From: an uncultured Dysosmobacter sp. | Lineage (GTDB): Bacteria > Bacillota > Clostridia > Oscillospirales > Oscillospiraceae | Assembly (NCBI GenBank): GCA_934636905.1 | Contig: CAKUBJ010000044.1 | Span: 1-10,146 of the forward strand | Direction: 5' to 3' | DNA: 10,146 nt | Shown here: piece by piece, positions 869-10,146 of the stretch | How positions within the stretch are numbered: position 1 is the first letter of the stretch | Layout of the letters: each line of letters starts with the position of its first letter | Position numbers and translations under genes: made by a program | The notes under the pieces: generated by a model | What the model was told of the DNA's origin: nothing | Seen by the model: the letters and a program-made list of their open reading frames with translations, nothing else | Database searches by the model: none

Positions 869-1498
869 TTATAAGGAGGGTTTCCGCTTTTTCCGGACGG
901 ACTCAATTTGGGCGATCAAGCGGTCGATATGCGTGCGCAGCATGGGCGCGACGCATTCCTTTTCAGCGGCTCCGTCGTAAACGCTGTAAAGCAGGAACAT
1001 GGGGCCGTAAAATTCCAGAGCCAGCTGCATGGCATCCTCGTCGGAATCCGTCAGACTCCGGAAAATCGCCGCCATGTACTCGGTAGGGCCGGCGGCCAGG
1101 CAATCGTGATACAGCTGCTTCAGCTTCGGATCCCGGTACTGCTCCAGTGTCAGCATTTTGCGGAAATTGGAGGCGAAGGGGTCTTTTGTCCAGTGGTCAA
1201 ACTGCGCCATGCTGTATGTGCGGATTTTTTCAATCGGCGTGTGCAGGTAGGCCTCTGCAAAGCCGTCCGGCTGCGTTTCCGGCATTTCGTATTCCGCAGC
1301 GCGTTCGTAGTCCATCCGGTTCATCCGCACCACGATGCTGTCCAGAATCTCCTGCTTGCCGGCGTAGTGCTTGTACAGGGCACCCTTTGTGATGCCCAGC
1401 CGCTGGGCAATGTCACGCATGGAGGTGCCCAGATACCCCTTCTCCGCAAATAATTCCAGCGCGGTTTCCAGAATGCGCTCTTTTGTGGTGCCGGCCAT
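869..1498 (-). CDS. TetR/AcrR-family transcriptional repressor
   Basis: The product has 209 residues. The N-terminal TetR helix-turn-helix spans about residues 5-50: TKERILETALELFAEKGY, then TSMRDIAQRLGITKGALYKHY, the strongly conserved recognition region. The remainder is the helical ligand-binding and dimerisation domain, which is variable, so the ligand cannot be predicted. A TTG start 15 nt upstream (1513) is rejected because it overlaps the ribosome site; ATG at 1498 has AGGAGGG 5 nt upstream. Two near-identical palindromes in its own promoter (1520-1535 and 1546-1561) are very likely its operators and imply autorepression. I saw no further copy of ACCGATCGGT elsewhere in the window, so within view its targets are itself and whatever is cotranscribed downstream. 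The C-terminus is basic (RKKRKPSL). Confidence 0.95.
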   Translation of the reverse strand: MAGTTKERILETALELFAEKGYLGTSMRDIAQRLGITKGALYKHYAGKQEILDSIVVRMNRMDYERAAEYEMPETQPDGFAEAYLHTPIEKIRTYSMAQFDHWTKDPFASNFRKMLTLEQYRDPKLKQLYHDCLAAGPTEYMAAIFRSLTDSDEDAMQLALEFYGPMFLLYSVYDGAAEKECVAPMLRTHIDRLIAQIESVRKKRKPSL

Positions 1499-1519
1499 GG
1501 TGTCCCTCCTCAATCGTTT

Positions 1520-1535
1520 GTAACCGATCGGTTAC
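1520..1535. promoter_or_regulatory. TetR operator 1 (perfect 16-bp palindrome)
   Basis: GTAACCGATCGGTTAC is a perfect palindrome lying just downstream of the -10 box, over the expected transcription start. ACCGATCGGT-type cores are typical of TetR-family operators. Its centre is 26 bp from that of operator 2. Confidence 0.85.
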
Positions 1536-1539
1536 TTAC

Positions 1540-1568
1540 AGTATAGTAACCGATCGGTTTCCTGTCAA
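1540..1568 (-). promoter_or_regulatory. Promoter of the TetR gene
   Basis: On the minus strand, a consensus TTGACA -35 box (1563-1568) and TATACT -10 box (1540-1545) are separated by exactly 17 nt (1546-1562). The predicted start is near 1533, about 35 nt before the ATG. The spacer is almost entirely occupied by operator 2. Confidence 0.9.
1546..1561. promoter_or_regulatory. TetR operator 2 (imperfect 16-bp palindrome)
   Basis: GTAACCGATCGGTTTC differs from operator 1 at one position and sits inside the -35/-10 spacer. Repressor bound here would directly occlude RNA polymerase. Confidence 0.85.
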
Positions 1569-1664
1569 GTCCTTTTCAAAAATTTGATCCTCCGGCACTA
1601 CACGGCGGAACGGAAAAACGCCGCTGCGGGAAAGGCTTTTCGCGGATCTACAAACACGGGGTCT

Positions 1665-1693
1665 TTGACAAATGGGCACATAAACAGAATAAT
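1665..1693 (+). promoter_or_regulatory. Possible plus-strand promoter, antisense to the VanW gene
   Basis: TTGACA (1665-1670) and AATAAT (1688-1693) are separated by 17 nt on the plus strand. A transcript would start near 1700, inside the hairpin at 1692-1742, and run into the 3' end of the VanW gene in antisense. No plausible plus-strand gene follows, so this may be chance. Confidence 0.3.
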
Positions 1694-1742
1694 GCGGCGG
1701 TTCTTGCCGAAAGGAACAGACTTCCGGTAAGAACCGCCGCAT
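1692..1742 (-). terminator. Hairpin after the VanW gene, probable terminator
   Basis: The arms 1692-1709 and 1725-1742 pair over 18 bp with a single G-T wobble; the loop is 15 nt. On the minus strand the stem is followed by TTATTCTGTTTAT, a moderately T-rich run. It lies 109 nt past the VanW stop codon and would separate that gene from the TetR promoter. The rest of the 1562-1851 gap shows nothing beyond this hairpin, the possible plus-strand promoter and the TetR promoter. Confidence 0.6.
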
Positions 1743-1851
1743 AGATTTCGTATAGATTCCGTGAGTTGAAACGCGGATCCGCAAGGATCTATGGGGGCAG
1801 GCTTTCACCCCTGCGGATTGCGTCCGGAGGGCACGCCACAGGCTGCCGCAA

Positions 1852-3663
1852 TTACGGCTCCTCCGGCGGGGTGATGAGGGAGGTTTCCGGCTCTGTCGGG
1901 GTATCCGGTTCCGAGGGAGCCGCAGGTTCTGAAGGGACGGCCGGCTCCGTCGGTGCGGAAGGCTCCGAAGGCGCCGTGCCAGTGTTCCCGCCGGATGCAG
2001 GGAGTTCCGCCGGGGCGCTTCCGGGGGCGGCGGCAGGTGCCCGCAGAACCACCTTGTTGCGCACCTTGTAATCGCTGGCAGCCTCAAAGTGGCTGTCGAT
2101 AACCTTGCCGTCCCGGTCGTAGATGGTCTGGTAGGTTCTCACCTTGTGGCCGGTGTAGGGGGTCACCTTCACCACGTCCGGGGCGCCGGGCGCCATGGTG
2201 GGGTCTTCCTCATAAATCGTCTCCCAGGGGGTGTCGGAGAGCACCTCGTTGGTCATTTTCGCGTAAGTACCGTCAACATTGGTGCCCAGAATCTTGACGG
2301 TCAGGTAGCCGCCGCTGTAGCTGGTGACGATTTTTACCGGGTAAAGGGTGTTGTTGGTGAATTTATAGTCCGGGCCGCCCCAGGACACCGTGGCGTCCAT
2401 GCCCCAGCTGATGTAGGCGGGCACATAGCGGTGGGCATAGCGCTCCGTGATTTCCAAATTGCTCAGCAGGCACGCCAGATACAGGGTGGAGGAGGTCTGG
2501 CAGATGCCGCCCCCCACCTCGTCCACGGTTTCCCCCTTGACATAGGCCGGGGCGGGCTTGTAGCCCCGGGCCTCCGTGCGCTGTCCCACGGACCCGTTGT
2601 AGGAGAAGGTTTCGCCGCTGTTGAGGACAATGCCGTTGATGGACTGGGCAGACAGCTTCACGTTGCCGATGCGCCCGGCGGAGCCGGAGACATGGGTTTT
2701 GGCCTCTCCCAGTACGTCCCGGAACAGCACGGCCTTCAGCTGTTGGGCGGTGACCTGCGGCTCTTCGATAACGGCGTCCACCGTCAGCGTTTCGCCGGGG
2801 GCGGCAGCGTCCATGGCCTTCTGGGCGGCGGCGGCGTCAAAATCAGCCCCCAGCTGTTCGGGGAGGATGGTATCGGTAGCGGCGTCATAGGAGGCGTTTT
2901 TCATCTTACCGTGAAGTTCATCGTAAATCTCCTGCGCGGTGAGGACTTTGGCCGGGAGGGTTTCCGCAGTCAGTTCCACCACGGCCTCCGGCTCGGAACT
3001 GACGTGCACCGCGTTCTGAATGGCGCGGCGCAGTTCGTTTTCCGCAATGGAGCGGCCGTCCCGGGCGGTGGTGATTTCAAGGGACTGACCCTCCAGCCGG
3101 TAAGCCGTATCAATCGGCGCGGCGTTCAGAAGGGCGGACAGCTTCGCTATGGCCTCATCCAGCCGGCGGCTGTCCCAGTACAGCGTGCCGTCATAGCCGG
3201 TTTCCTTTCCCAGCAGGTATTTCAGATAGGTAAAGCCTGTGGAGAGGTAACCCTTTCCCTGCTGGAGAATAAACGGAGTTTTCGCCATATGGTCATAGCC
3301 GTCTTCCGGAAAAAGCCCCAGTTCCTCAAAGGTAATGGACGCATCCGGCTCCCGGTCTTCCGGGGATGCGGCGCCCTGCTCGCTGAGGTAGATTCTGCAC
3401 ACCCGCCGGGGAATTTCGGCTTCCAGTCTGGCCTGCGCTTCCTCCACGGTCAGGCCGCCTACCGCCACACCGTTGACGGTAGTATGAGGAAAAAAGGTGC
3501 TGCGGTTATTCGCCAGCGTACAGCAGGCGCCGAAAAGCACCACAACCGTCAGAACAACTGCGCCCAGTGCGATTTTCCAGCCCTTCCCGCCTTTTTTCCG
3601 GTTTGGCTCCTCCGCCAGCCGCTTCCCCGGCTGGGCCTGCACATTGGCTTCCATCGGTTCCAT
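1852..3663 (-). CDS. Membrane-anchored VanW-domain cell-wall protein with Pro/Ser/Glu tail
   Basis: The product has 603 residues. A basic cytoplasmic N-terminus (to about 30) precedes one membrane helix (31-51), and the rest should be outside the cell. Residues 60-300 resemble the paired PG_binding_4 domains usual in this family (VNGVAVGGLTVEEAQARL near 63-80). The VanW domain spans about 325-450, with FSYNGSVGQRTEARGY and the diagnostic GGGICQTSSTLY (384-395). Residues 470-542 look like a G5-type domain. The final 60 residues are low-complexity proline, serine, glutamate and threonine. VanW proteins are common in Clostridia; the domain accompanies some vancomycin-resistance clusters, but its biochemical role is unsettled, and no vanHAX genes are here, so resistance should not be inferred. 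ATG at 3663 has AGGAGGG 7 nt upstream; an in-frame ATG three codons later is possible. TATGAT (3723-3728) could be a -10 box, but no matching -35 is evident. Confidence 0.9.
   Translation of the reverse strand: MEPMEANVQAQPGKRLAEEPNRKKGGKGWKIALGAVVLTVVVLFGACCTLANNRSTFFPHTTVNGVAVGGLTVEEAQARLEAEIPRRVCRIYLSEQGAASPEDREPDASITFEELGLFPEDGYDHMAKTPFILQQGKGYLSTGFTYLKYLLGKETGYDGTLYWDSRRLDEAIAKLSALLNAAPIDTAYRLEGQSLEITTARDGRSIAENELRRAIQNAVHVSSEPEAVVELTAETLPAKVLTAQEIYDELHGKMKNASYDAATDTILPEQLGADFDAAAAQKAMDAAAPGETLTVDAVIEEPQVTAQQLKAVLFRDVLGEAKTHVSGSAGRIGNVKLSAQSINGIVLNSGETFSYNGSVGQRTEARGYKPAPAYVKGETVDEVGGGICQTSSTLYLACLLSNLEITERYAHRYVPAYISWGMDATVSWGGPDYKFTNNTLYPVKIVTSYSGGYLTVKILGTNVDGTYAKMTNEVLSDTPWETIYEEDPTMAPGAPDVVKVTPYTGHKVRTYQTIYDRDGKVIDSHFEAASDYKVRNKVVLRAPAAAPGSAPAELPASGGNTGTAPSEPSAPTEPAVPSEPAAPSEPDTPTEPETSLITPPEEP
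1873..1976 (-). repeat. Degenerate short tandem repeats coding the P/S/E tail
   Basis: Imperfect units related to TCCGAAGGCGCC (plus strand) repeat through this stretch and encode PSEP/PTEP/APSEP motifs at the C-terminus of the VanW protein. Such tracts may vary in length between strains by slippage. They also create an open plus-strand shadow frame. Confidence 0.7.
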
Positions 3664-3789
3664 GATGAAGCCCTCCTAAATCACAATGTCGTTCAAAGAG
3701 AAACAGCTTCTCAATCAACGATATCATACCATCCTTTCCACAAAAAAGGTGTTACAATCCGGTAACAGAGCCGGAAATTTTGCAGGAAA

Positions 3790-3818
3790 AGCCGGCCGGA
3801 GCAGCACTCCGACCGGCC
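3790..3818. repeat. GC-rich hairpin with CAGCA loop, copy 1
   Basis: Arms 3791-3801 and 3807-3817 pair over 11 positions around the 5-nt loop CAGCA. The single C-A mismatch on the plus strand becomes a G-T wobble on the minus strand. The first 22 bases (3790-3811) recur exactly at 3981-4002. The hairpin abuts the 57-bp inverted repeat that starts at 3819 and seems to be part of the same element. Confidence 0.75.
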
Positions 3819-3875
3819 GAGACTGTCGATAAAGTGGCAAATTCTCCGCACCGGTAAGGAAGGGTGTGCGCGGGA
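3819..3875 (+). repeat. 57-bp inverted repeat, right copy
   Basis: This is the partner, in opposite orientation, of 38-94. The identical blocks are 3819-3833 (containing GACTGTCGATAAA) and 3852-3875 (containing GGTAAGGAAGGGTGTGCGCG). The two copies bracket the VanW, TetR, small-ORF and four-helix genes. The region is non-coding. Confidence 0.85.
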
Positions 3876-3917
3876 AACCCAAGAAGGGTGTCCTGCGCCA
3901 TTAAAATTTGCAGTTTA

Positions 3918-3938
3918 CAGAACTTTTATAAAGTTCTG
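3918..3938. repeat. Short AT-rich perfect hairpin
   Basis: CAGAACTTT and AAAGTTCTG form a perfect 9-bp stem with a TAT loop. It lies between the 57-bp repeat and the long hairpin downstream of the ParB/Noc gene. Function unknown. Confidence 0.55.
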
Positions 3939-3945
3939 AAAACTT

Positions 3946-3983
3946 GCTCAGCGGGGCGAAAAGACTTTTTCGCCCCGCTGAGC
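3946..3983 (-). terminator. Strong hairpin downstream of the ParB/Noc gene, probable terminator
   Basis: A perfect 17-bp stem (3946-3962 with 3967-3983) has a 4-nt loop. It is GC-rich at the base and has A/T runs at the tip. It sits 89 nt beyond the ParB/Noc stop on the minus strand and is followed there by AAGTTTTCAG, only partly T-rich. Termination is the simplest role. It directly abuts hairpin copy 2 (3982-4008), so it may instead belong to the repeat element. Confidence 0.55.
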
Positions 3984-4009
3984 CGGCCGGAGCAGCACTC
4001 CGGTCGGCC
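3981..4009. repeat. GC-rich hairpin with CAGCA loop, copy 2
   Basis: Arms 3982-3992 and 3998-4008 pair over 11 bp with one G-T wobble and the same CAGCA loop as copy 1. The 22 bases from 3981 are an exact direct repeat of 3790-3811. On the plus strand a run of six T begins 9 nt after the stem (4018-4023). The rest of the 3664-4072 gap holds only these repeats and the VanW leader. Confidence 0.75.
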
Positions 4010-4072
4010 TTGCTGCATTTTTTCCGGGATGCAGGCAGAAAAGCGGTCACTCTTCTCCCCGGCCGCGGCTCT

Positions 4073-4864
4073 TCAGCCCCTGCGGACGGCTTTGGGAATC
4101 CGGATGGTCAGGAGGATGGCGTCCTCCGTGTCCTCCCGGCGGGACTCCGCGCCGATGCCCGCCTCCCGCACCAGCCGCAGTCCCCGGTCCAGACTGTTGA
4201 GAAACAGCCGCACATCCTTGAGGATGAAGGTGCGGCGGCCTGATGGCGGCGTGGTCTGAAGCGCAGCAAGGCGCTTTTCGATATACTGCTCCGTTTGGGC
4301 AACGTTGAGACGAGCCTTGATGATATGACGCAGAGCGGCCAGCCGTTCCTCGGAATCCTCCAGCCGCAGCAGTGCCCGGGCGTGGCGCTCCGAAAGGCCG
4401 TTTTCCGTCAGCATTCTGCGGCAGTCCGGGGAGAGCCGCAGCAGCCGCAGCTTGTTGGCCAGTGCGGAGGGAGAGCGCCCCAGCCGGGCGGCGGCCTCCT
4501 CCTGTGTGGCGCCGGACTGCCGGAGATAGGCGGCAATGGCGGCGGCCTCTTCAAAGTAGTGTAAATCCCGCCGCTGGATGTTCTCAATCAGCGCCAGCAG
4601 GGCGGAATCCTCATCCTCCGCCCGGCGGCACAGGCAGGGCACCGTTTGCAGCCCCGCCAGCTTTGCCGCCCGGAGGCGGCGCTCCCCTGCCACCAGTTCC
4701 CAGCCCTGAGGCGTCCGGCGGACGGTGAGGGGCTGAAGAATCCCGTGGCTGCGGATGGAATCCGCCAGTTCCGCCAGCGGCTGCGGGGCAAAATCCCTCC
4801 GGGGCTGATAAGGGTTGGGGGCAATGGCTTCCACCGGAAGCTGAAGCACCTGCGAGTCCAACAT
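4073..4864 (-). CDS. noc: ParB/Spo0J-family protein, likely Noc-type nucleoid-occlusion protein
   Basis: The product has 263 residues, normal for the family. The N-terminal ParB domain shows NPYQPR (17-22), LAELADSI, the CTP-binding GERRLRA motif (60-66) and ENIQRRDL (94-101), followed by FEEA. A helix-turn-helix lies at about 119-146 (TQEEAAARLGRSPSALANKLRLLRLS). The C-terminal KDVRLFLNSLDRGLRLVREAGI...LLTIRIPK resembles the Noc dimerisation region more than Spo0J, so Noc is preferred. In Bacillus, Noc binds dispersed DNA sites, uses CTP to load on DNA and blocks division over the chromosome. The usual neighbours (rsmG, parA) are absent, so a second chromosomal ParB role cannot be excluded. 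ATG at 4864 has GGGAGGA 8 nt upstream. No N-terminal amphipathic membrane-targeting helix like that of Bacillus Noc is obvious: the protein begins MLDSQVLQLPVEAI. Confidence 0.85.
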   Translation of the reverse strand: MLDSQVLQLPVEAIAPNPYQPRRDFAPQPLAELADSIRSHGILQPLTVRRTPQGWELVAGERRLRAAKLAGLQTVPCLCRRAEDEDSALLALIENIQRRDLHYFEEAAAIAAYLRQSGATQEEAAARLGRSPSALANKLRLLRLSPDCRRMLTENGLSERHARALLRLEDSEERLAALRHIIKARLNVAQTEQYIEKRLAALQTTPPSGRRTFILKDVRLFLNSLDRGLRLVREAGIGAESRREDTEDAILLTIRIPKAVRRG

Positions 4865-4966
4865 AACCGGATTCCTCCCTGCTGTATGGTTTTCCCTGCC
4901 TTTGGCCTCATTTTAGTGCAAAAGTTCGGAGAAACCGCGGGAAAACCGTCGGGAAATTCAAAAATA

Positions 4967-4993
4967 ACTGCCAATCTTCCATAGACCGGCAGT
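4967..4993 (-). terminator. Rho-independent terminator after the transporter gene
   Basis: Arms 4967-4977 and 4983-4993 form an 11-bp stem, counting two G-T wobbles on the minus strand, with a 5-nt loop. A TATTTTTGAATTT run follows. It begins 12 nt past the stop of the symporter gene. The other side also carries CGTTTTTG, so it could work in both directions. Confidence 0.8.
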
Positions 4994-5005
4994 CGTTTTT
5001 GAAAA

Positions 5006-5962
5006 TTACTTTGAATTTGCTTTGGCACGGCTCCTCTGAAAAAGCTGCACGGCAATGGAAGTGCAGAATTGAGAAAACATGGGAGAGATGGAGGGGGCAA
5101 ATGCCGCAGCTGTGGGAAAATACTGGGCAGCAATTGTGCTGGCTGCCGCAATGTTTTTGGTGCCGGAATCCACCGTAACCGTCAGAGTAATATCACGGGG
5201 AAACCGGAACAGGCGGGACAGTCCATAGCCGATCAGCAGTCCTAAAGGCCGGAACAGGAATGTCAGGAACATCAGCAGAAGCAGTTCTCCATTGATCTGC
5301 TGAAGCATGGGAACACTGCGGGTTATATTGGCTCCCACTACAATCAGCATAATCAGCTTTGTAAGGAAGCCTGACTTGCTTTTGATCCGCGCGCAAAAGG
5401 GCTTTCCCTTAAAACGGCAGAGCAGCATGGCAGCTGCCGCCGGGAGAACGGTCATGATGACCAGATCGCGAATCATACCCACCGTGTCCAGCGCCACCAC
5501 GGAGCCGCACAGAACACGCAGCGTCAGGGGAAGAATCAAGGGGGAGAGCAGTGTATCAAAAAGGACGACGGACAGGCACAGTTCTACATTTCCGCTGCCA
5601 AGAGAAACCCACATCAGGGATGCAATTGCCACGGGAGAGGCCTCAATCAAAACAAAGCCCAGGGCATACAAAGGCTGCTCCGGAAACACCCATGTGCCGA
5701 CGCCAAAAGCAATCAGCGGCATCAGAATATGGACGGTAAGCAGACACAGCAGGATGGGCTTGGGATGGGCGAACATACGGATCAGATCATGAAAGCTGCC
5801 GCCAAGGCTGCTGAAAAAGGTCTGGGCACACATGAGTACCGTGATATAGGGGCACAATTTCCCCATAGTGTCGGGAAAGAGAAGGCCGATGGCGAGAACC
5901 GCAATAATCAGAAGCGGCATTTTGGGAGTCATCCAGTCGCTGATTTTCTGCAAAACACTCAT
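5006..5962 (-). CDS. Bile acid:sodium symporter (BASS) family transporter
   Basis: The product has 318 residues, with about ten hydrophobic segments covering nearly the whole chain, matching the SBF/BASS fold. Segment EASPVAIASLMWVSLGSGNV (107-126), followed by LSVVLFDTLLSPLILPL, resembles the first conserved unwound-helix region of the family. DSGTKNIAAASTIAAQYFP (265-283) resembles the second. Bacterial members move bile acids, organic anions, pantoate-like or other carboxylates with sodium; the substrate cannot be read from sequence. ACR3 arsenite carriers share the fold, but no ars genes are nearby. ATG at 5962 has AAAGGATG about 8 nt upstream. The gene starts 24 nt after prmA and is probably cotranscribed with it. 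Confidence 0.85.
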   Translation of the reverse strand: MSVLQKISDWMTPKMPLLIIAVLAIGLLFPDTMGKLCPYITVLMCAQTFFSSLGGSFHDLIRMFAHPKPILLCLLTVHILMPLIAFGVGTWVFPEQPLYALGFVLIEASPVAIASLMWVSLGSGNVELCLSVVLFDTLLSPLILPLTLRVLCGSVVALDTVGMIRDLVIMTVLPAAAAMLLCRFKGKPFCARIKSKSGFLTKLIMLIVVGANITRSVPMLQQINGELLLLMFLTFLFRPLGLLIGYGLSRLFRFPRDITLTVTVDSGTKNIAAASTIAAQYFPTAAAFAPSISPMFSQFCTSIAVQLFQRSRAKANSK

Positions 5963-5986
5963 AAAAAAGACATCCTTTCCGAAGCA

Positions 5987-6961
5987 TCAGCGGCAGGCAT
6001 AGGAGAACCAGCCCTCGCCGGAGCGCGTCTTTTCAATCTCCCAGCCGTTCTGCCGCAGGGCTTCCGCCACTTCCTCCGCCCGGGTGTCGATGATGCCGGA
6101 GCAGAGGAACAGCCCGCCGGGCTTCAGGAACCGGCGCACCATGGGGGCAAGACCGATGATGACGTCCGCCACAATGTTGGCCGCCACAATGTCATACCCG
6201 GTGCCCAGACTGTCCCGGAGGGCGGCATCGGACAGCACGTCCCCCACCAGCACCTGATAGCGATCCTTGCCGATGCCGTTGAGAGCGGCATTTTCATAAG
6301 CCACCGTCAGGCATTTGTCGTCAATGTCCACGGCCTTGGCGGAGGCGGCTCCCAGCCGCAGGGCGGCAATGGAGAGAATGCCGCTGCCGCAGCCCAGATC
6401 CAGCACCTGCTCGCCGCCGTGCACCGTCTCCTCCAGCGCCGTCAGGCACAGGCGGGTGGTGGCGTGGCTGCCGGTGCCGAAGGTCAGCCCCGGCTCCAGA
6501 ATCAGGGGGACTTTCCCGGCATATTTCGCCTGCCCCTTCACGTTGTCCTGCTCCCATTCCGGGATCACCAGCAGCCGCTCCCCGATCTCCATGGGCTTGT
6601 AATACTGCTTCCAGTTGTTCTCCCAGTCGGCATCCTCCAGATTCTCCATGGTCATCAGCAGGGTGCCGTATTTCCCGGCATGGGCTTCCCTGAAGCCCTG
6701 AAGGGCGGTGCGCAGCTGCCCCAGCCGGGCAAAGCCCTCGTCGTCCGCCGGGAGGTAGAAGGTAATCCGGGACTTGCCCTCCATGGACTTTTCCAGATCC
6801 TCATCCACATAATCCCAATACTGGTGGTTGTTTTCCAGAAAACTCCGGAAATCCTGTTCGTCGTCAATCACCACGCCGTCCACGCCGTTGGCGGAGAGAA
6901 AAATCTCCAGCGGCTCCAATCCGGCGTGGTTGGTGTCAATATGCAGTTCCAGCCATTCCAT
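5987..6961 (-). CDS. prmA: Ribosomal protein L11 methyltransferase
   Basis: The product has 324 residues. It uses S-adenosylmethionine to trimethylate ribosomal protein L11 in the cytoplasm. Residues 1-100 are the L11-recognition domain (MEWLELHIDT start, typical of the family). The catalytic part has PGLTFGTGSHATTRLCL (157-173), the SAM-binding VLDLGCGSGILSIAAL (186-201), DIDDKC (212-217), ANIVADVI (261-268) and SGIIDTR. The frame is open for 55 more codons upstream, but ATG at 6961 is chosen because homologues begin M-W-L/E-like and GAGG sits 5 nt upstream. The longer forms would run through the preceding terminator. No strong promoter is seen: TTGACT occurs in the leader, but without a good -10. 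Confidence 0.95.
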   Translation of the reverse strand: MEWLELHIDTNHAGLEPLEIFLSANGVDGVVIDDEQDFRSFLENNHQYWDYVDEDLEKSMEGKSRITFYLPADDEGFARLGQLRTALQGFREAHAGKYGTLLMTMENLEDADWENNWKQYYKPMEIGERLLVIPEWEQDNVKGQAKYAGKVPLILEPGLTFGTGSHATTRLCLTALEETVHGGEQVLDLGCGSGILSIAALRLGAASAKAVDIDDKCLTVAYENAALNGIGKDRYQVLVGDVLSDAALRDSLGTGYDIVAANIVADVIIGLAPMVRRFLKPGGLFLCSGIIDTRAEEVAEALRQNGWEIEKTRSGEGWFSYACR

Positions 6962-7017
6962 ACAATCCTCACAAGTCATTCCGCAGGGCGGAAAAGTCAA
7001 AAAGAAGCGAAAAAAAC

Positions 7018-7040
7018 GGGTCGGGAAATTTTCCCGACCC
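7018..7040 (-). terminator. Rho-independent terminator of the DUF1836-degV operon
   Basis: GGGTCGGGAA (7018-7027) pairs perfectly with TTCCCGACCC (7031-7040) around a 3-nt loop. On the minus strand the stem is followed by CGTTTTTTTCGC. It starts 12 nt after the degV stop. An A-rich tract precedes the stem, giving a classic intrinsic terminator. Confidence 0.92.
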
Positions 7041-7052
7041 ATTTTAGCATAC

Positions 7053-7925
7053 TTATCGCGCTTTGCCAAGGAAAAACAGCGCCATGGTGCCCGGGCCGGA
7101 GTGGTTTCCGATAACCGGCCCCACATAGTTGATGTGGATGGTCTTGACGCCCAGACGGCGGCGCACCTCCCCGGCTACAAATTCCGCGTCCTCCAGGCAG
7201 TCGCCGTGGCTGATGAACACGGTCTGGTTCTCCGGGTCCATGGCGGACTCCGCCATCCGGTCTACCAGCGCCGTCAGGGATGCCCGGCGTCCCCGGGCCT
7301 TGCTGACGGGAGTCAGGCGCCCCTCGTCATCCACATGCATCACCGGCTTGATGGCCAGCATGGTGCCGAAAAGCGCCGTGGCGGCGCTGATGCGTCCTCC
7401 CCGCTTCAGATGGTTCAGGTCGTCCACCGTGAACCAGTGGCAGAGGTGCGCCTTCGTCTTCTCGGCAAAGGCCTTCACCTCGTCTATGGTTTTCCCCTTC
7501 TTCTGCTCCTGGGCGCAGAGCCAGACAAACAGCCCCTGCCCCAGAGAGGCGCACAGGGAGTCCACCGTCAGAATCCGGGCGTCCGGGAACTCGCTTTTCA
7601 GTTCCTCCGCCGCAATGACGGAGGACTGATAGGTGGTGGACAGGGCGGAGGAAAAGCTGATGCTCAGGATGTCCTTCCCGGTTTTCAGGATTTCCCGCAT
7701 CTTCGCTTCAAATTCCCCCACGTTGACGGCGGAGGTAGTGGCCAGCGCACCATTCCGGATACGGGCATAGAACTCCTGAAAGCCGATGTCCCGGCCGTCC
7801 AGATAATTGCGGTAGGTTTTGCCCTCCATCTGAAGGCTCAGAGGCAGAACCTCCACGCCCAGCTCTGCCGCCATTTCGGCGGTGAGGTCACAGCAGCTGT
7901 CTGTTAAAATCACATAATCACGCAT
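7053..7925 (-). CDS. DegV-family fatty-acid-binding protein
   Basis: The product has 290 residues, the normal DegV/FakB length. DegV proteins bind a fatty acid chain; FakB members present it to the kinase FakA for phospholipid synthesis. Seen here: N-terminal ILTDSCCDL (6-14), ATTSAVNVGEF (62-72), SISFSSALSTTYQSS (88-102), VDSLCASLGQG (121-131), LKRGGRIS (173-180) and HSGPGTMALFF (275-285). These are the family's lipid-head-group and loop motifs. No fakA is in view. The frame extends 29 codons upstream, but ATG at 7925 has AAAGGAG 10 nt upstream and matches the family start. It overlaps the DUF1836 gene by 8 nt, indicating translational coupling, and a strong terminator follows. Confidence 0.93.
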   Translation of the reverse strand: MRDYVILTDSCCDLTAEMAAELGVEVLPLSLQMEGKTYRNYLDGRDIGFQEFYARIRNGALATTSAVNVGEFEAKMREILKTGKDILSISFSSALSTTYQSSVIAAEELKSEFPDARILTVDSLCASLGQGLFVWLCAQEQKKGKTIDEVKAFAEKTKAHLCHWFTVDDLNHLKRGGRISAATALFGTMLAIKPVMHVDDEGRLTPVSKARGRRASLTALVDRMAESAMDPENQTVFISHGDCLEDAEFVAGEVRRRLGVKTIHINYVGPVIGNHSGPGTMALFFLGKAR

Positions 7926-8490
7926 CGGTTTTGCGCTCCTTTCTGGCCTTTGCGGCTTTTTTGCCCTCGGCTTTGCCGGCGTCCGGCGTCCGGGAACGAA
8001 TCTGCGCCACATACCGGCGGCTCACAAGCCCCGCGGCGTAGCTCAGCAGTCCGAAGTGGACGGCGGCATCCGCCAGCTGCTCCGTATTCACATAGTGCTC
8101 CATCTCCCGGGAGGTGGCGGTCAGGGCGCTGTCCAGACTTTCCAGAAACGCGCGGTAGCCGTCCTCCACAGGGCGGTCGCCGTCCAGTTCCGTGCGGATC
8201 AGCAGATCCATATCCCGGGCGGACATCACCTGCTTGAGGATGCAGATGAAGGTGAGATAGGCCAGATGCTCCCGGTTGTACTTTTTTCCCTCGGCCCGGG
8301 GAACCAGCCCGTTCTTCGTGTAGTTGTTCACCATGGAAGCGGTCAGGGCGTCGCTTTCATCCAGACGGATGGTCTGCCGCTCCATATAGGAGAGGACCTG
8401 ATCCATGTACAGGGGAAAGTCCGGCAGTGCTTTCCACGCCTTGGGGCGAAGCGTTTCCAGCTGCCGGCGGAAAGCGGTAATATCCTCCAT
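7918..8490 (-). CDS. DUF1836 protein, probable DNA-binding regulator
   Basis: The product has 190 residues. Residues 42-90 (RLDESDALTASMVNNYTKNGLVP, then KKYNREHLAYLTFICILKQV) resemble a MerR-like winged helix and match the DUF1836 pattern found widely in Clostridia and Bacilli. The C-terminal half is helical and the last 25 residues are Lys/Arg/Ala-rich (KKAAKARKERK), so nucleic-acid contact is plausible. Target unknown. The frame is open 39 codons further upstream, but ATG at 8490 has AAAGGAG 7 nt before it and lies downstream of the promoter -10 box, which rules out the longer form. First gene of a two-gene operon with degV. Confidence 0.85.
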   Translation of the reverse strand: MEDITAFRRQLETLRPKAWKALPDFPLYMDQVLSYMERQTIRLDESDALTASMVNNYTKNGLVPRAEGKKYNREHLAYLTFICILKQVMSARDMDLLIRTELDGDRPVEDGYRAFLESLDSALTATSREMEHYVNTEQLADAAVHFGLLSYAAGLVSRRYVAQIRSRTPDAGKAEGKKAAKARKERKTDA

Positions 8491-8521
8491 ACCGGTACTC
8501 CTTTGCTTTGGAATACATTGG

Positions 8522-8550
8522 ATTATAGCACAGGCTGATGGTTTTGTAAA
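8522..8550 (-). promoter_or_regulatory. Promoter of the DUF1836-degV operon
   Basis: On the minus strand, TTTACA (8545-8550) and a perfect TATAAT (8522-8527) are separated by 17 nt, with TGTGC just before the -10 box (extended -10). The start would be near 8515, leaving a leader of about 25 nt. Confidence 0.85.
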
Positions 8551-8606
8551 CCGGATTATGCGATAAACAAAACGCAGACAGGACATAAAATTTTTGCCAA
8601 AACCCA

Positions 8607-8635
8607 TTGACAGAGCAGGAAATGTATGCTATCTT
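8607..8635 (+). promoter_or_regulatory. Promoter of the micropeptide-GntR-ABC operon
   Basis: TTGACA (8607-8612) and TATCTT (8630-8635) have a 17-nt spacer, with TG-C immediately before the -10 box (extended -10). The predicted start near 8642 lies inside the inverted repeat at 8636-8662. It faces away from the DUF1836 promoter. Confidence 0.85.
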
Positions 8636-8662
8636 AACTGTACTAACACGCATAGTACAGTT
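8636..8662. promoter_or_regulatory. Probable GntR (YtrA-type) operator
   Basis: AACTGTACTA and TAGTACAGTT form a perfect 10-bp inverted repeat with a 7-nt spacer, directly after the -10 box and covering the start point. A third half-site, TACAGTT, follows at 8665-8671. Position and symmetry suggest autorepression by the GntR protein encoded at 9006-9368. The RNA could also form a short 5' hairpin. Confidence 0.75.
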
Positions 8663-8683
8663 GATACAGTTCGGAGGAACGTT

Positions 8684-8791
8684 ATGAAGCTTATGAGAAA
8701 AGTGGCAGCCGCCGTGATAGTACTGGGGATTCTGGCGGCGCTGACGGTGGGTGTGGTTCTGAAGCCATGCCGGAAAGGAGCGAAAAAATGA
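8684..8791 (+). CDS. 35-residue single-helix membrane micropeptide, cationic ends
   Basis: ATG at 8684 follows GGAGG at 6-nt spacing. The frame is open 30 codons upstream, but those codons overlap the promoter and operator, so the short form is the gene. The peptide has a basic N-terminus (MKLMRK), one hydrophobic helix at about 7-26 and a strongly basic tail with one cysteine (KPCRKGAKK). It is too short for a secreted mature protein after signal cleavage, so a membrane peptide is likely. First gene of the operon; its stop overlaps the next start (ATGA). No family recognised. Confidence 0.7.
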   Translation: MKLMRKVAAAVIVLGILAALTVGVVLKPCRKGAKK

Positions 8792-8877
8792 TGCTGTTTG
8801 GATTTGCGGGGATTGCCGCCATAGCGGGTCTGATTTTCGCAGCGGTGGTTCTGGTGGCTGTGGCTTTGCAGCCGTGA
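8788..8877 (+). CDS. 29-residue hydrophobic membrane micropeptide
   Basis: ATG at 8788 overlaps the preceding TGA in ATGA and has AAAGGAG 7 nt upstream. The product starts MMLFGFAGIA and is hydrophobic to the end (ALQP), with no charged residue at all. Gly/Ala spacing (GIAAIAG) suits close helix packing. It resembles the following peptide in layout: Met-Met start, short, Ala/Gly/Leu/Val. Function unknown. Confidence 0.65.
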   Translation: MMLFGFAGIAAIAGLIFAAVVLVAVALQP

Positions 8878-8887
8878 AGGAGACGTT

Positions 8888-8965
8888 ATGATGACGCTTT
8901 TACTGGGCATCATCGGCGCGGCGCTGCTGGCGATTGTACTGGCGGCGGTGATTCTGCACCGCTGA
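8888..8965 (+). CDS. 25-residue hydrophobic membrane micropeptide
   Basis: ATG at 8888 has AAGGAG about 6 nt upstream and starts 10 nt after the previous stop. The product runs MMTLLLGIIGAALLAIVLAA and ends in VILHR: one helix with a basic C-terminal end. Like its neighbour it begins with Met-Met. The GntR gene begins 40 nt later. No known family; B. subtilis ytrG, a short ORF ahead of ytrA, is a positional analogue only. Confidence 0.65.
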   Translation: MMTLLLGIIGAALLAIVLAAVILHR

Positions 8966-8990
8966 TGCGGAACATCCATGACCCTTGGAA

Positions 8991-8997
8991 AAGGAGG
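8991..8997 (+). promoter_or_regulatory. Ribosome binding site deciding the GntR start
   Basis: AAGGAGG here rules out the upstream TTG (8985), which it overlaps, and favours GTG at 9006 (8-nt spacing). An out-of-frame ATG at 9004 (6-nt spacing) opens only Met-Cys-stop. Confidence 0.75.
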
Positions 8998-9005
8998 AAA
9001 CCCAT

Positions 9006-9368
9006 GTGTTGACATTGAATTACCGGGACTCCCGTCCCATTTACGAGCAGATTAAGGACGGCCTGCGGCGGATGATTGTCACCGGTGCCATGGCTCAGGA
9101 CGAAAAGCTGCCCTCCGTCCGGGCGATGGCCACCCAGCTGTCCATCAACCCTAACACCATCCAGCGGGCCTACAACGAGTTGGAGCAGGAGGGCTACATT
9201 TATTCCGTAGCCGGGAAGGGCAGCTTCGTCAGCGGTACGGCGGACGCCGACGCCGCCCGGCGGGAAAGCCTGAAGGAGGATTTGCGGAAGCTGCTGGGGG
9301 AACTGCGCTGTCTGGGCATGACCCATGAGGATGCCGCAAAACTCATCAAGGAGGTATACGAGCAATGA
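9006..9368 (+). CDS. GntR-family transcriptional repressor, YtrA subfamily
   Basis: The product has 120 residues with a GTG start. The N-terminal winged helix spans about 10-76: RPIYEQIKDGLRRMIVTGAM, LPSVRAMATQLSINPNTIQRAY, and LEQEGYIYSVAGKGSFV, matching the GntR consensus closely. Only about 45 helical residues follow (RRESLKEDLRKLLGELRCLGM, then HEDAAKLIKEVYEQ), the short dimerisation tail of the YtrA subfamily, with no effector domain. Such regulators usually repress their own ABC-transporter operon and are induced by cell-envelope stress or antimicrobial peptides; here the inducer is unknown. The stop overlaps the ATPase start (ATGA), so the two are coupled. The likely operator is 8636-8662. 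Confidence 0.93.
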   Translation: MLTLNYRDSRPIYEQIKDGLRRMIVTGAMAQDEKLPSVRAMATQLSINPNTIQRAYNELEQEGYIYSVAGKGSFVSGTADADAARRESLKEDLRKLLGELRCLGMTHEDAAKLIKEVYEQ

Positions 9369-10146
9369 TTGAAGTGAAAAACGTCGTCAAGACCTTTGAC
9401 GGCTTCACCGCCCTGAATGACGCCACCCTCAGCGTCCCCACCGGCGCGGTTTACGGGCTGGTAGGCCCCAACGGCGCCGGCAAGTCCACCATCATCCGCC
9501 ACCTCACCGGTATTTTCCGGCAGGACAGCGGCACGGTGCAGCTGGGGGGCGAGGACGTGTGGGAAAACGCGGCGCTGAAAGCCCGGATCGCCGCCATTCC
9601 CGACGACTGGTACTATTTCAGCACTGCCACCATCCGTGACATGATGCGGTTTTACAGGGGCTTCTACCCCAACTTCTCCATGGGGCGGTACGAAAAACTG
9701 AAAGAGGTTTTCAATCTGGACGAAAAGCGTCCCATCCGGCGGTTTTCCAAGGGGATGCAAAAGCAGGCGGCCTTCTGGCTGGCGCTGTCCGCCATGCCGG
9801 ACTACCTGATTCTGGATGAGCCGGTGGACGGCCTTGACCCGGTGATGCGCCGGCAGGTGTGGAGCCTGATGATGGGCGACGTGGCGGAACGGGGCACTAC
9901 GGTGCTGGTGTCCAGCCACAACCTCCGGGAACTGGAGGACGTGTGCGACCATGTGGGCATCATGGATCACGGCCATGTGCTGCTGGAGCGGAGCCTTGCC
10001 CAGCTGCAGGACAACATGGTGAAGATGCAGGTGGTGTTCCCCGACGGCGTCAGCGAGGTGCCCACCGGCCTGCCGGTGCTCCATGCGTCGAGAATCGGCC
10101 GGGTGCATACCCTCATCATGCGGATGAACGCCCAAGAGGCTACGGA
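9365..10146 (+). CDS. ABC transporter ATP-binding protein, cut by the window end
   Basis: At least 260 residues are visible. Walker A is GPNGAGKST (34-42), the signature is FSKGMQKQ (127-134), Walker B is YLILDEP (147-153), the D-loop is GLD and the H-loop is SSH (183-185). The Q-loop glutamine is not evident: the region reads AAIPDDWYYF. FSKGM in place of LSGGQ, with an acidic Q-loop region, fits the YtrB/BcrA-like exporter ATPases that pair with YtrA regulators. ATG at 9365 overlaps the GntR stop by 4 nt. After the core domain a C-terminal extension starts (about 218 on). The permease should lie just beyond the window. The role is probably export or resistance; the substrate is unknown. Confidence 0.93.
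   Translation, partial: MIEVKNVVKTFDGFTALNDATLSVPTGAVYGLVGPNGAGKSTIIRHLTGIFRQDSGTVQLGGEDVWENAALKARIAAIPDDWYYFSTATIRDMMRFYRGFYPNFSMGRYEKLKEVFNLDEKRPIRRFSKGMQKQAAFWLALSAMPDYLILDEPVDGLDPVMRRQVWSLMMGDVAERGTTVLVSSHNLRELEDVCDHVGIMDHGHVLLERSLAQLQDNMVKMQVVFPDGVSEVPTGLPVLHASRIGRVHTLIMRMNAQEAT

What the first reader, a model, noticed from the sequence alone, without database searches (positions are those of the whole stretch)
8684..8965. Three tandem membrane micropeptides heading a GntR-ABC operon
Three consecutive ORFs of 35, 29 and 25 codons each have a well-spaced Shine-Dalgarno site, are packed tightly (4-nt overlap, then a 10-nt gap), and each encode one hydrophobic helix. They sit between a strong promoter with an operator and a YtrA-type repressor plus ABC ATPase. 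The second and third share a Met-Met start and Ala/Gly/Leu/Val make-up. ORFs this short are routinely missed by gene callers. They might be transporter accessory subunits, envelope-stress sensors, or peptides the exporter handles, as Pmt exports phenol-soluble modulins in Staphylococcus. B. subtilis ytrG is a loose positional precedent.
Basis: partly seen in the sequence, partly recalled or inferred. Interest (0 to 1): 0.75.

Follow-up and report, generated by a model that had tools for sequence, protein, structure and literature searches.

The report
Tandem membrane micropeptides before a repressor
Some gut bacteria place one to three tiny membrane-spanning peptide genes, usually unlabelled, between a control switch in the DNA and the genes for its repressor and a cell-envelope transporter; comparison of related genomes indicates that they are real genes, but what they do is still unknown.

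Summary
ORFs 8684-8791 (35 aa), 8788-8877 (29 aa) and 8888-8965 (25 aa) lie between a promoter/operator (8607-8662) and a YtrA-type gntR (GTG start 9006) plus an ABC ATPase. No chain of three such ORFs arose in 20,000 shuffles of the leader. ORF2 has 53 database relatives, 41 of exactly 29 aa; ORF1 has 7, all 35 aa. The closest fetched locus (gntR 86% identical) carries two peptides. In all, 37 of 196 non-redundant related gntR loci carry 1-3 single-helix peptides in this slot (curated set). They are clade-confined, and six of seven families compared have pN/pS 0.14-0.51, the seventh 0.76. 50 of 53 peptides have R/K in the last two residues. Sister lineages keep operator-gntR-ABC but lack the peptides, so these are a lineage-specific add-on. 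Most likely they are N-out/C-in small membrane proteins, co-repressed with the transporter and acting as accessory or modulating subunits; an attractive alternative is that they signal to the repressor. PSM-like exported peptides are disfavoured: the helices are not amphipathic. Function is inferred, not shown.

The parts
8607..8635 (+). sigma-A-type promoter TTGACA-N17-TATCTT
   Evidence: 10 of 12 matches, TG before -10; TTG-type -35, N15-18, TANNNT ending at the operator in 68 of the 88 clade loci where an operator was found (96 in the clade)
8636..8662 (.). YtrA-type operator, AACTGTACTA-N7-TAGTACAGTT
   Evidence: pattern YGTAYTA-N7-TARTACRGT present in 75 of 86 genomes of one genus; the backward-read control matched twice in all
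8684..8791 (+). micropeptide ORF1, 35 aa, one predicted TM helix with basic N- and C-termini
   Evidence: 7 database relatives, all 35 aa, 88-97% identical; positional counterpart in L120 (33 aa, basic tail)
8788..8877 (+). micropeptide ORF2, 29 aa, one predicted TM helix, starts by a 4-nt overlap with ORF1
   Evidence: 53 database relatives, 41 of exactly 29 aa
8888..8965 (+). micropeptide ORF3, 25 aa, one predicted TM helix ending in HR
   Evidence: counterpart ending in HR in L120 and in run-on database entries P0027 and P0057, both ending ILHR; not searched on its own
8991..8997 (+). Shine-Dalgarno of gntR
   Evidence: sequence, 8 nt before GTG 9006
9006..9368 (+). YtrA-type GntR repressor (120 aa)
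   Evidence: PF00392 E 7e-16; PmtR model E 9e-21 but far below its cut-off; nearest PDB chains 3neu and 4ham
9365..10146 (+). ABC ATPase, runs off the window
   Evidence: PF00005 E 4e-22; an ABC gene 39-88% identical follows gntR in all 196 non-redundant loci (range recounted)

Best explanation
The three ORFs are real genes of a lineage-specific family of single-helix membrane micropeptides, inserted between the operator and the repressor of a conserved operon: operator - (micropeptide x1-3) - gntR - ABC ATPase - about 670-aa ABC-2-type permease - amidase. They are transcribed from the same promoter and so are co-repressed with the transporter and, by analogy with B. subtilis ytr, induced by envelope stress. 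Each inserts with its N-terminus outside and a basic C-terminus inside. The most likely action is that of an accessory or modulating subunit that packs against the permease, as KdpF, AcrZ and CydX do with their partners and as YtrG might by position. Shown here: ORFs, order, conservation, clade-wise inheritance, amino-acid-level constraint, shared operator. Inferred: translation in vivo, topology, induction signal, partner and action. Probability that they are real protein-coding genes about 0.95; that the main action is as accessory or modulating membrane subunit about 0.5.
For: Chance excluded. ORF2: 41 distinct database sequences of exactly 29 aa, invariant among themselves at positions 6-7, 15-19 and 26-28; ORF1: 7 of exactly 35 aa. 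Run-on entries show an ORF1-like sequence followed by ORF2 (P0011, P0014, P0015) and ORF2 followed by an ORF3-like one (P0027, P0057), so the order recurs. The nearest fetched relative L120 has two. 37 of 196 relatives carry 1-3 peptides (28 with one, 5 with two, 4 with three), plus L190 (TTG start) and L238. pN/pS in seven groups: 0.40, 0.14, 0.17, 0.27, 0.76, 0.51, 0.16. R/K in the last two residues in 50 of 53 and dibasic in 33 of 53, against 24% and 1.25% of 400 null ORFs; still 22 of 42 dibasic when AGGAGG-coded ends are left out, so this is not just the overlapping Shine-Dalgarno. C-side more positive in 45 of 53. Tree: 8 parsimony changes against a mean of 32.4 (minimum 27) for 200 label shuffles. 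The partner is an exporter-like ABC system with an Amidase_2 gene downstream in L004; the same operator precedes a GT4-type glycosyltransferase gene elsewhere in several genomes.
Against: No expression, ribosome profiling, topology or interaction data. The operon is kept without the peptides in sister lineages: 61 of 96 clade loci were scored without, and 0 of the 26 class-wide loci where gntR and its start were found had a candidate. One family, the 'middle' peptides, has pN/pS 0.76 and gives weak support. A test for a conserved helix face in ORF2 was not significant (p = 0.24). Some database entries look as if ORF1 were frameshifted (e.g. P0012), cause unknown.
Confidence: 0.5

Rival explanations
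1. The micropeptides act on the repressor: made from the first genes of the transcript, their basic cytosolic tails bind or tether the GntR protein, which has no large effector domain, and relay membrane state to it, a feedback or sensor loop.
For: They sit between the operator and gntR in the 29 bearing clade loci where the operator pattern was found (35 bearing). [quoted passage not shown] Two GntR-type repressors of ABC operons bind short membrane-active peptides directly: PmtR binds some PSMs (PMC5080381, section 10) and ClnR binds LL-37 (PMC6117091, abstract). The conserved basic C-terminus is predicted cytosolic.
Against: The same kind of repressor with the same operator is kept without any micropeptide in sister clades. 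PSMs and LL-37 are amphipathic (recalled); these peptides are not. No binding evidence.
Confidence: 0.2
2. Translated leader: the ORFs matter mainly as ribosome loading sites that protect the mRNA or couple and set translation of gntR; the peptide product is of little importance.
For: In 10 of 38 loci the last peptide ends 4 nt before gntR, and in all ten the end reads AGGAGGTGA, so the stop codon lies in the gntR Shine-Dalgarno. Sister lineages without peptides have a GC-rich hairpin in the same place (35 of 36 chosen leaders fold).
Against: Other loci have gaps of 7-40 nt. Helix, length and basic tail are conserved at amino-acid level.
Confidence: 0.15
3. The peptides are substrates of the exporter (signals, bacteriocin-like or PSM-like).
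For: Leaderless short hydrophobic peptides next to an exporter; Pmt precedent (PMC5080381, abstract).
Against: No amphipathic face, TM-like hydrophobicity, acidic residues in only 7 of 53 and a charge in the first five residues in 10 of 53; exporter kept without them.
Confidence: 0.09
4. Small membrane toxins of a type I toxin-antitoxin kind.
For: Size and a single helix with a basic end resemble such toxins (recalled).
Against: No antisense RNA was looked for beyond Rfam, which has no match over its cut-offs in the window, so this is only weakly tested; stable inheritance and up to three different copies in one operon speak against it.
Confidence: 0.04
5. Chance ORFs in a long leader.
For: Hydrophobic frames are not rare: 664 of 20,000 shuffles of the leader held one.
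Confidence: 0.02

Closest known systems
YtrG, first gene of ytrGABCDEF of Bacillus subtilis
KdpF / AcrZ / CydX type small membrane subunits
   Same: Single-helix small proteins attached to a large membrane complex (KdpF recalled; AcrZ from the start of the abstract of PMC7267776 in a search listing; CydX from the abstract of PMC6005532, which reports that no single residue is essential, in line with the sequence plasticity here).
   Different: No homology shown or tested; no partner shown; the number varies from 0 to 3 per operon here.
PmtR-Pmt with phenol-soluble modulins, and ClnRAB with LL-37
   Same: GntR-type repressor and ABC transporter that respond to short membrane-active peptides (PMC5080381 abstract and section 10; PMC6117091 abstract).
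   Different: There the peptides are amphipathic (recalled) and come from elsewhere; here they are not amphipathic and are encoded in the operon. The window GntR scores 74.2 bits against the PmtR cut-off of 200.
YtrA regulons in general
   Same: Palindromic operator, auto-repression, ABC genes downstream (PMC4494728 and PMC6746942, passages).
   Different: The regulator is generally the first gene of the operon (PMC6746942, passage); here one to three micropeptide genes come first.

Membership tests
YtrA subfamily of GntR | GntR winged-helix N-terminus, total about 120-130 aa with a short C-terminal part | tested here: met
   PF00392 at residues 12-74 of the 119 scanned; 120 aa from GTG 9006; the seven nearest PDB chains have 113-134 aa
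YtrA subfamily of GntR | Long palindromic operator at the promoter of its own ABC operon | tested here: met
   (sequence only; binding not tested)
YtrG-like small protein | Position: head of a ytrA-ABC operon; small; transmembrane | tested here: met
   literature PMC12772383
YtrG-like small protein | Sequence homology to YtrG | not testable with these tools
   the YtrG sequence appeared in no call
Pmt / PSM system | GntR over the PmtR equivalog cut-off | tested here: not met
   74.2 bits against a cut-off of 200
Pmt / PSM system | Amphipathic helical peptides | tested here: not met
   mean helical moment 0.07, maximum 0.20, over 53 peptides
Any described Pfam family (ORF1-3) | Match over a curated cut-off | tested here: not met
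   no family over its cut-off for ORF1-3
Small membrane accessory subunit (KdpF/AcrZ/CydX type) | Single TM helix of about 25-50 residues in one operon with a membrane complex | tested here: met
   (one operon inferred from spacing and a single promoter; one of the 53 peptides has only 19 aa)
Small membrane accessory subunit (KdpF/AcrZ/CydX type) | Physical association with the complex | not testable with these tools
   no complex prediction or interaction data

The most novel reading that the evidence does not exclude
A built-in peptide sensor for YtrA-type repressors: tandem membrane micropeptides made from the repressor's own transcript hold or release the repressor through their basic cytosolic tails, so that membrane state sets transcription; the 0-3 copies would tune the response.
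Probability: 0.18. Interest if true: 0.8.

Novelty: new variant of a known kind. Interest (0 to 1): 0.55.

Why it matters
YtrA-type repressors are common in Firmicutes (PMC4494728, passage), and what their B. subtilis namesake senses is still a matter of speculation (PMC12772383, discussion). A set of small membrane proteins encoded between operator and repressor, present in some related gut bacteria and cleanly absent in others, is a natural experiment on that question. It also adds a well-supported family to the thin list of bacterial micropeptides with a clear genetic partner.

Tried and rejected
Chance ORFs: rejected. PSM-like amphipathic peptides: rejected on helical moment. Dibasic end as a mere by-product of the gntR Shine-Dalgarno: rejected in part, since 22 of 42 peptides not ending in AGGAGG are still dibasic; 11 of 33 dibasic ends read AGG AGG TGA. 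A conserved helix face in ORF2: not significant, p = 0.24 for all 41 sequences and for the 17 on two or more contigs. A stand-alone micropeptide gene under the same operator in G435 (L223): dropped, because L223 and the gntR locus L132 both stop at contig ends and may be one locus split by an insertion. Rfam: no family over its cut-off in the window. No terminator-like site in 8500-9400. Search of 297 relatives of G442 with a 29-aa ORF2 relative: none, and the tool warns that this shows nothing.

Dropped rows: of the 50 candidate loci, 39 minus L190 were kept. The hand list names 11 loci (L023, L027, L030, L067, L074, L079, L090, L122, L125, L177, L205). Seven of them start with TTG and would fall to the ATG/GTG rule anyway; the other four (L023, L027, L030, L205) lie before or across the operator. 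The ATG/GTG rule also dropped L190, which looks genuine; the hydrophobicity cut dropped the first chain member of L163. 21 of 197 loci were left out of the tree for lack of a readable ABC segment; three of them (L028, L048, L108) carry peptides. L080 and L219 had no gntR start by my rule, nor had L314, L315 and L320; L337 had no adjacent gntR. L117-L241 came from 'listed places' only in part: fetched 80 places of those listed, and a further 20, of which 17 were examined late and are not in the counts. Shuffles were mononucleotide only. The sequence pairs are not independent. The 36 leaders were chosen by hand from the 61 clade loci without peptides.

Literature: search listings. No listed title or abstract start described these micropeptides; most subscription journals are not held, and the human-microbiome small-protein study cited in PMC11364881 (seen as passages) was not read.

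Full report
Observation. The window ends in an operon start on the + strand. A promoter TTGACA-N17-TATCTT (8607-8635) and an inverted repeat (8636-8662) are followed by three short ORFs and then by gntR (GTG 9006) and an ABC ATPase gene. In 20,000 shuffles of the leader no chain of three arose.

Relatives. DNA searches of 8, 400 and 86 genomes followed and matched in 7, 196 and 77; the 86 were given as one genus. Besides the loci returned, 80 of the listed places were fetched. Of 219 loci with a readable gntR start, 196 were non-redundant. A loose chain rule found at least one candidate in 50 of 197 loci, window included, against 84 of 3,940 shuffled leaders and 4 of 197 reverse-complemented ones. 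After the curation told under Tried and rejected, 38 loci (37 relatives and the window) hold 53 peptides: 28 loci with one, 5 with two and 5 with three. Of 17 further regions examined later, one (L238) has a convincing peptide and two (L229, L239) show candidates that I judge artefacts.

What the peptides look like. 50 of the 53 are 19-35 aa and three are 42-43 aa. 50 of 53 carry R or K in the last two residues and 33 of 53 both; 400 null ORFs from shuffled leaders give 24% and 1.25%. 7 of 53 contain an acidic residue. The best 18-mer has mean hydrophobicity 0.86 and moment 0.07, as expected of a membrane-spanning rather than a surface-lying helix. The C side is more positive in 45, equal in 7 and less in 1, which by the positive-inside rule (recalled) suggests N-out/C-in. 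Within related groups nucleotide changes favour synonymous ones: pN/pS 0.14-0.51 in six groups, 0.76 in the seventh.

The window's own peptides. ORF1 has seven database relatives, all 35 aa. ORF2 has 53, of which 41 have exactly 29 aa; in these 41, FA (6-7), LIFAA (15-19) and ALQ (26-28) never change. Longer entries run from an ORF1-like into ORF2 or from ORF2 into an ORF3-like sequence ending ILHR, so the order recurs outside this window; whether the run-on is natural or an assembly error cannot be told. One 29-aa cluster is listed with 1,000 contigs, so the group is probably common. The nearest fetched locus, L120 (gntR 86%, ABC 88%), has two: a 33-aa peptide with a basic tail and a 28-aa peptide ending HR. 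ORF3 alone could not be searched.

Evolution. On a GntR+ABC tree of 176 of 197 loci the bearing loci fall in a 96-locus clade, 35 with and 61 without by the curated list (L190 among the latter has a TTG-started peptide). Presence needs 8 changes, against a mean of 32.4 (minimum 27) for 200 label shuffles. Operator end to gntR is short in the loci without (median 41 nt, 59 of 61 measured); operator end to first peptide is a median 20 nt in bearers (29 of 35 measured); 8 clade loci showed no operator by my pattern. In a class-level sample of 196 genomes, 48 matched the ABC protein at E 1e-60; 30 loci were returned and 26 gave a gntR start, none with a candidate peptide; one of the 26 is G001, already in the set. 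So the peptides look like a lineage-specific, mostly vertically kept insertion, not an essential part of the transporter.

Setting. The permease predicted from L001 (pLDDT 86.7) has as best Foldseek hits NosDFY and a mycobacterial efflux pump, at weak E-values (0.03-0.05; none under 0.001), so an ABC-2-like class is indicated but not proved. An Amidase_2 gene follows in L004 (Pfam) and similar ORFs, judged by eye, in L001, L005, L013 and L072. The operator occurs in 75 of 86 genus genomes. Of 20 further operator sites fetched, 6 (L276, L281, L282, L283, L287, L288) stand before a GT4-type glycosyltransferase ORF by eye, as do L222 and L224; Pfam was run on the L222 pair, glycosyltransferase and VTT-domain protein. 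The other 14 sites showed no clear gene by my quick screen. Amidase, glycosyltransferase and VTT protein point to the cell envelope, as does B. subtilis ytr (PMC12772383).

Function. Nothing here shows function. A co-encoded single-helix protein next to a membrane transporter often turns out to be a subunit or modulator (established knowledge), hence 0.5. Direct action on GntR deserves serious testing because PmtR and ClnR bind peptides (PMC5080381 section 10; PMC6117091 abstract) and because the genes sit exactly between operator and repressor, hence about 0.2. A leader role gets 0.15 because of the stop-in-Shine-Dalgarno spacing in 10 of 38 loci.

Verdict. A real, little-noticed micropeptide family in a known kind of operon; new as a tandem array preceding the repressor, with ytrG as a one-gene precedent. 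No description of it appeared in nine search listings of the held library.

Noticed in passing
L124, L121, L097, L001 and others, leader between operator and gntR: In sister lineages without micropeptides the leader holds a GC-rich hairpin (such as GCGGC...GCCGC) just before the gntR Shine-Dalgarno, with differing stems; 35 of 36 hand-chosen leaders fold with at least 5 bp and under -5 kcal, but no consensus fold came out of the alignment and shuffle z-scores are modest (median -0.88 over 48 leaders).
   Followed up: partly
L276, L281, L282, L283, L287, L288, L222, L224: A second copy of the operator precedes a GT4-type glycosyltransferase ORF, followed in L222 and L224 by a VTT-domain-like (DedA/TVP38-like) membrane protein: a small envelope regulon.
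   Followed up: partly
L004, L005, L010, L012, L014, L072 (C-terminus of the permease): The permease ends in a detached GGADGPT motif typical of the oxaloacetate decarboxylase beta subunit (PF03977 E 2e-5 in L004, the only one scanned); absent in other relatives such as L001 and L016.
   Followed up: no
L223 and L132 (genome G435), L012: An insertion seems to sit at the end of a micropeptide gene and before gntR; the two G435 contigs end there.
   Followed up: partly
window 7053-8493, minus strand: DUF1836 and DegV genes lie divergent from the operon; L013 keeps prmA, DegV and DUF1836 near gntR but on the same strand as gntR.
   Followed up: no
window 872-7126, minus strand: TetR-type regulator (872-1513), VanW-like protein (1855-3663), ParB (4076-4864), SBF-type transporter (5009-5962) and PrmA (5990-7126) by Pfam.
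   Followed up: no
window 9004-9012: A two-codon ATG TGT TGA overlaps the gntR start region out of frame; probably chance.
   Followed up: no
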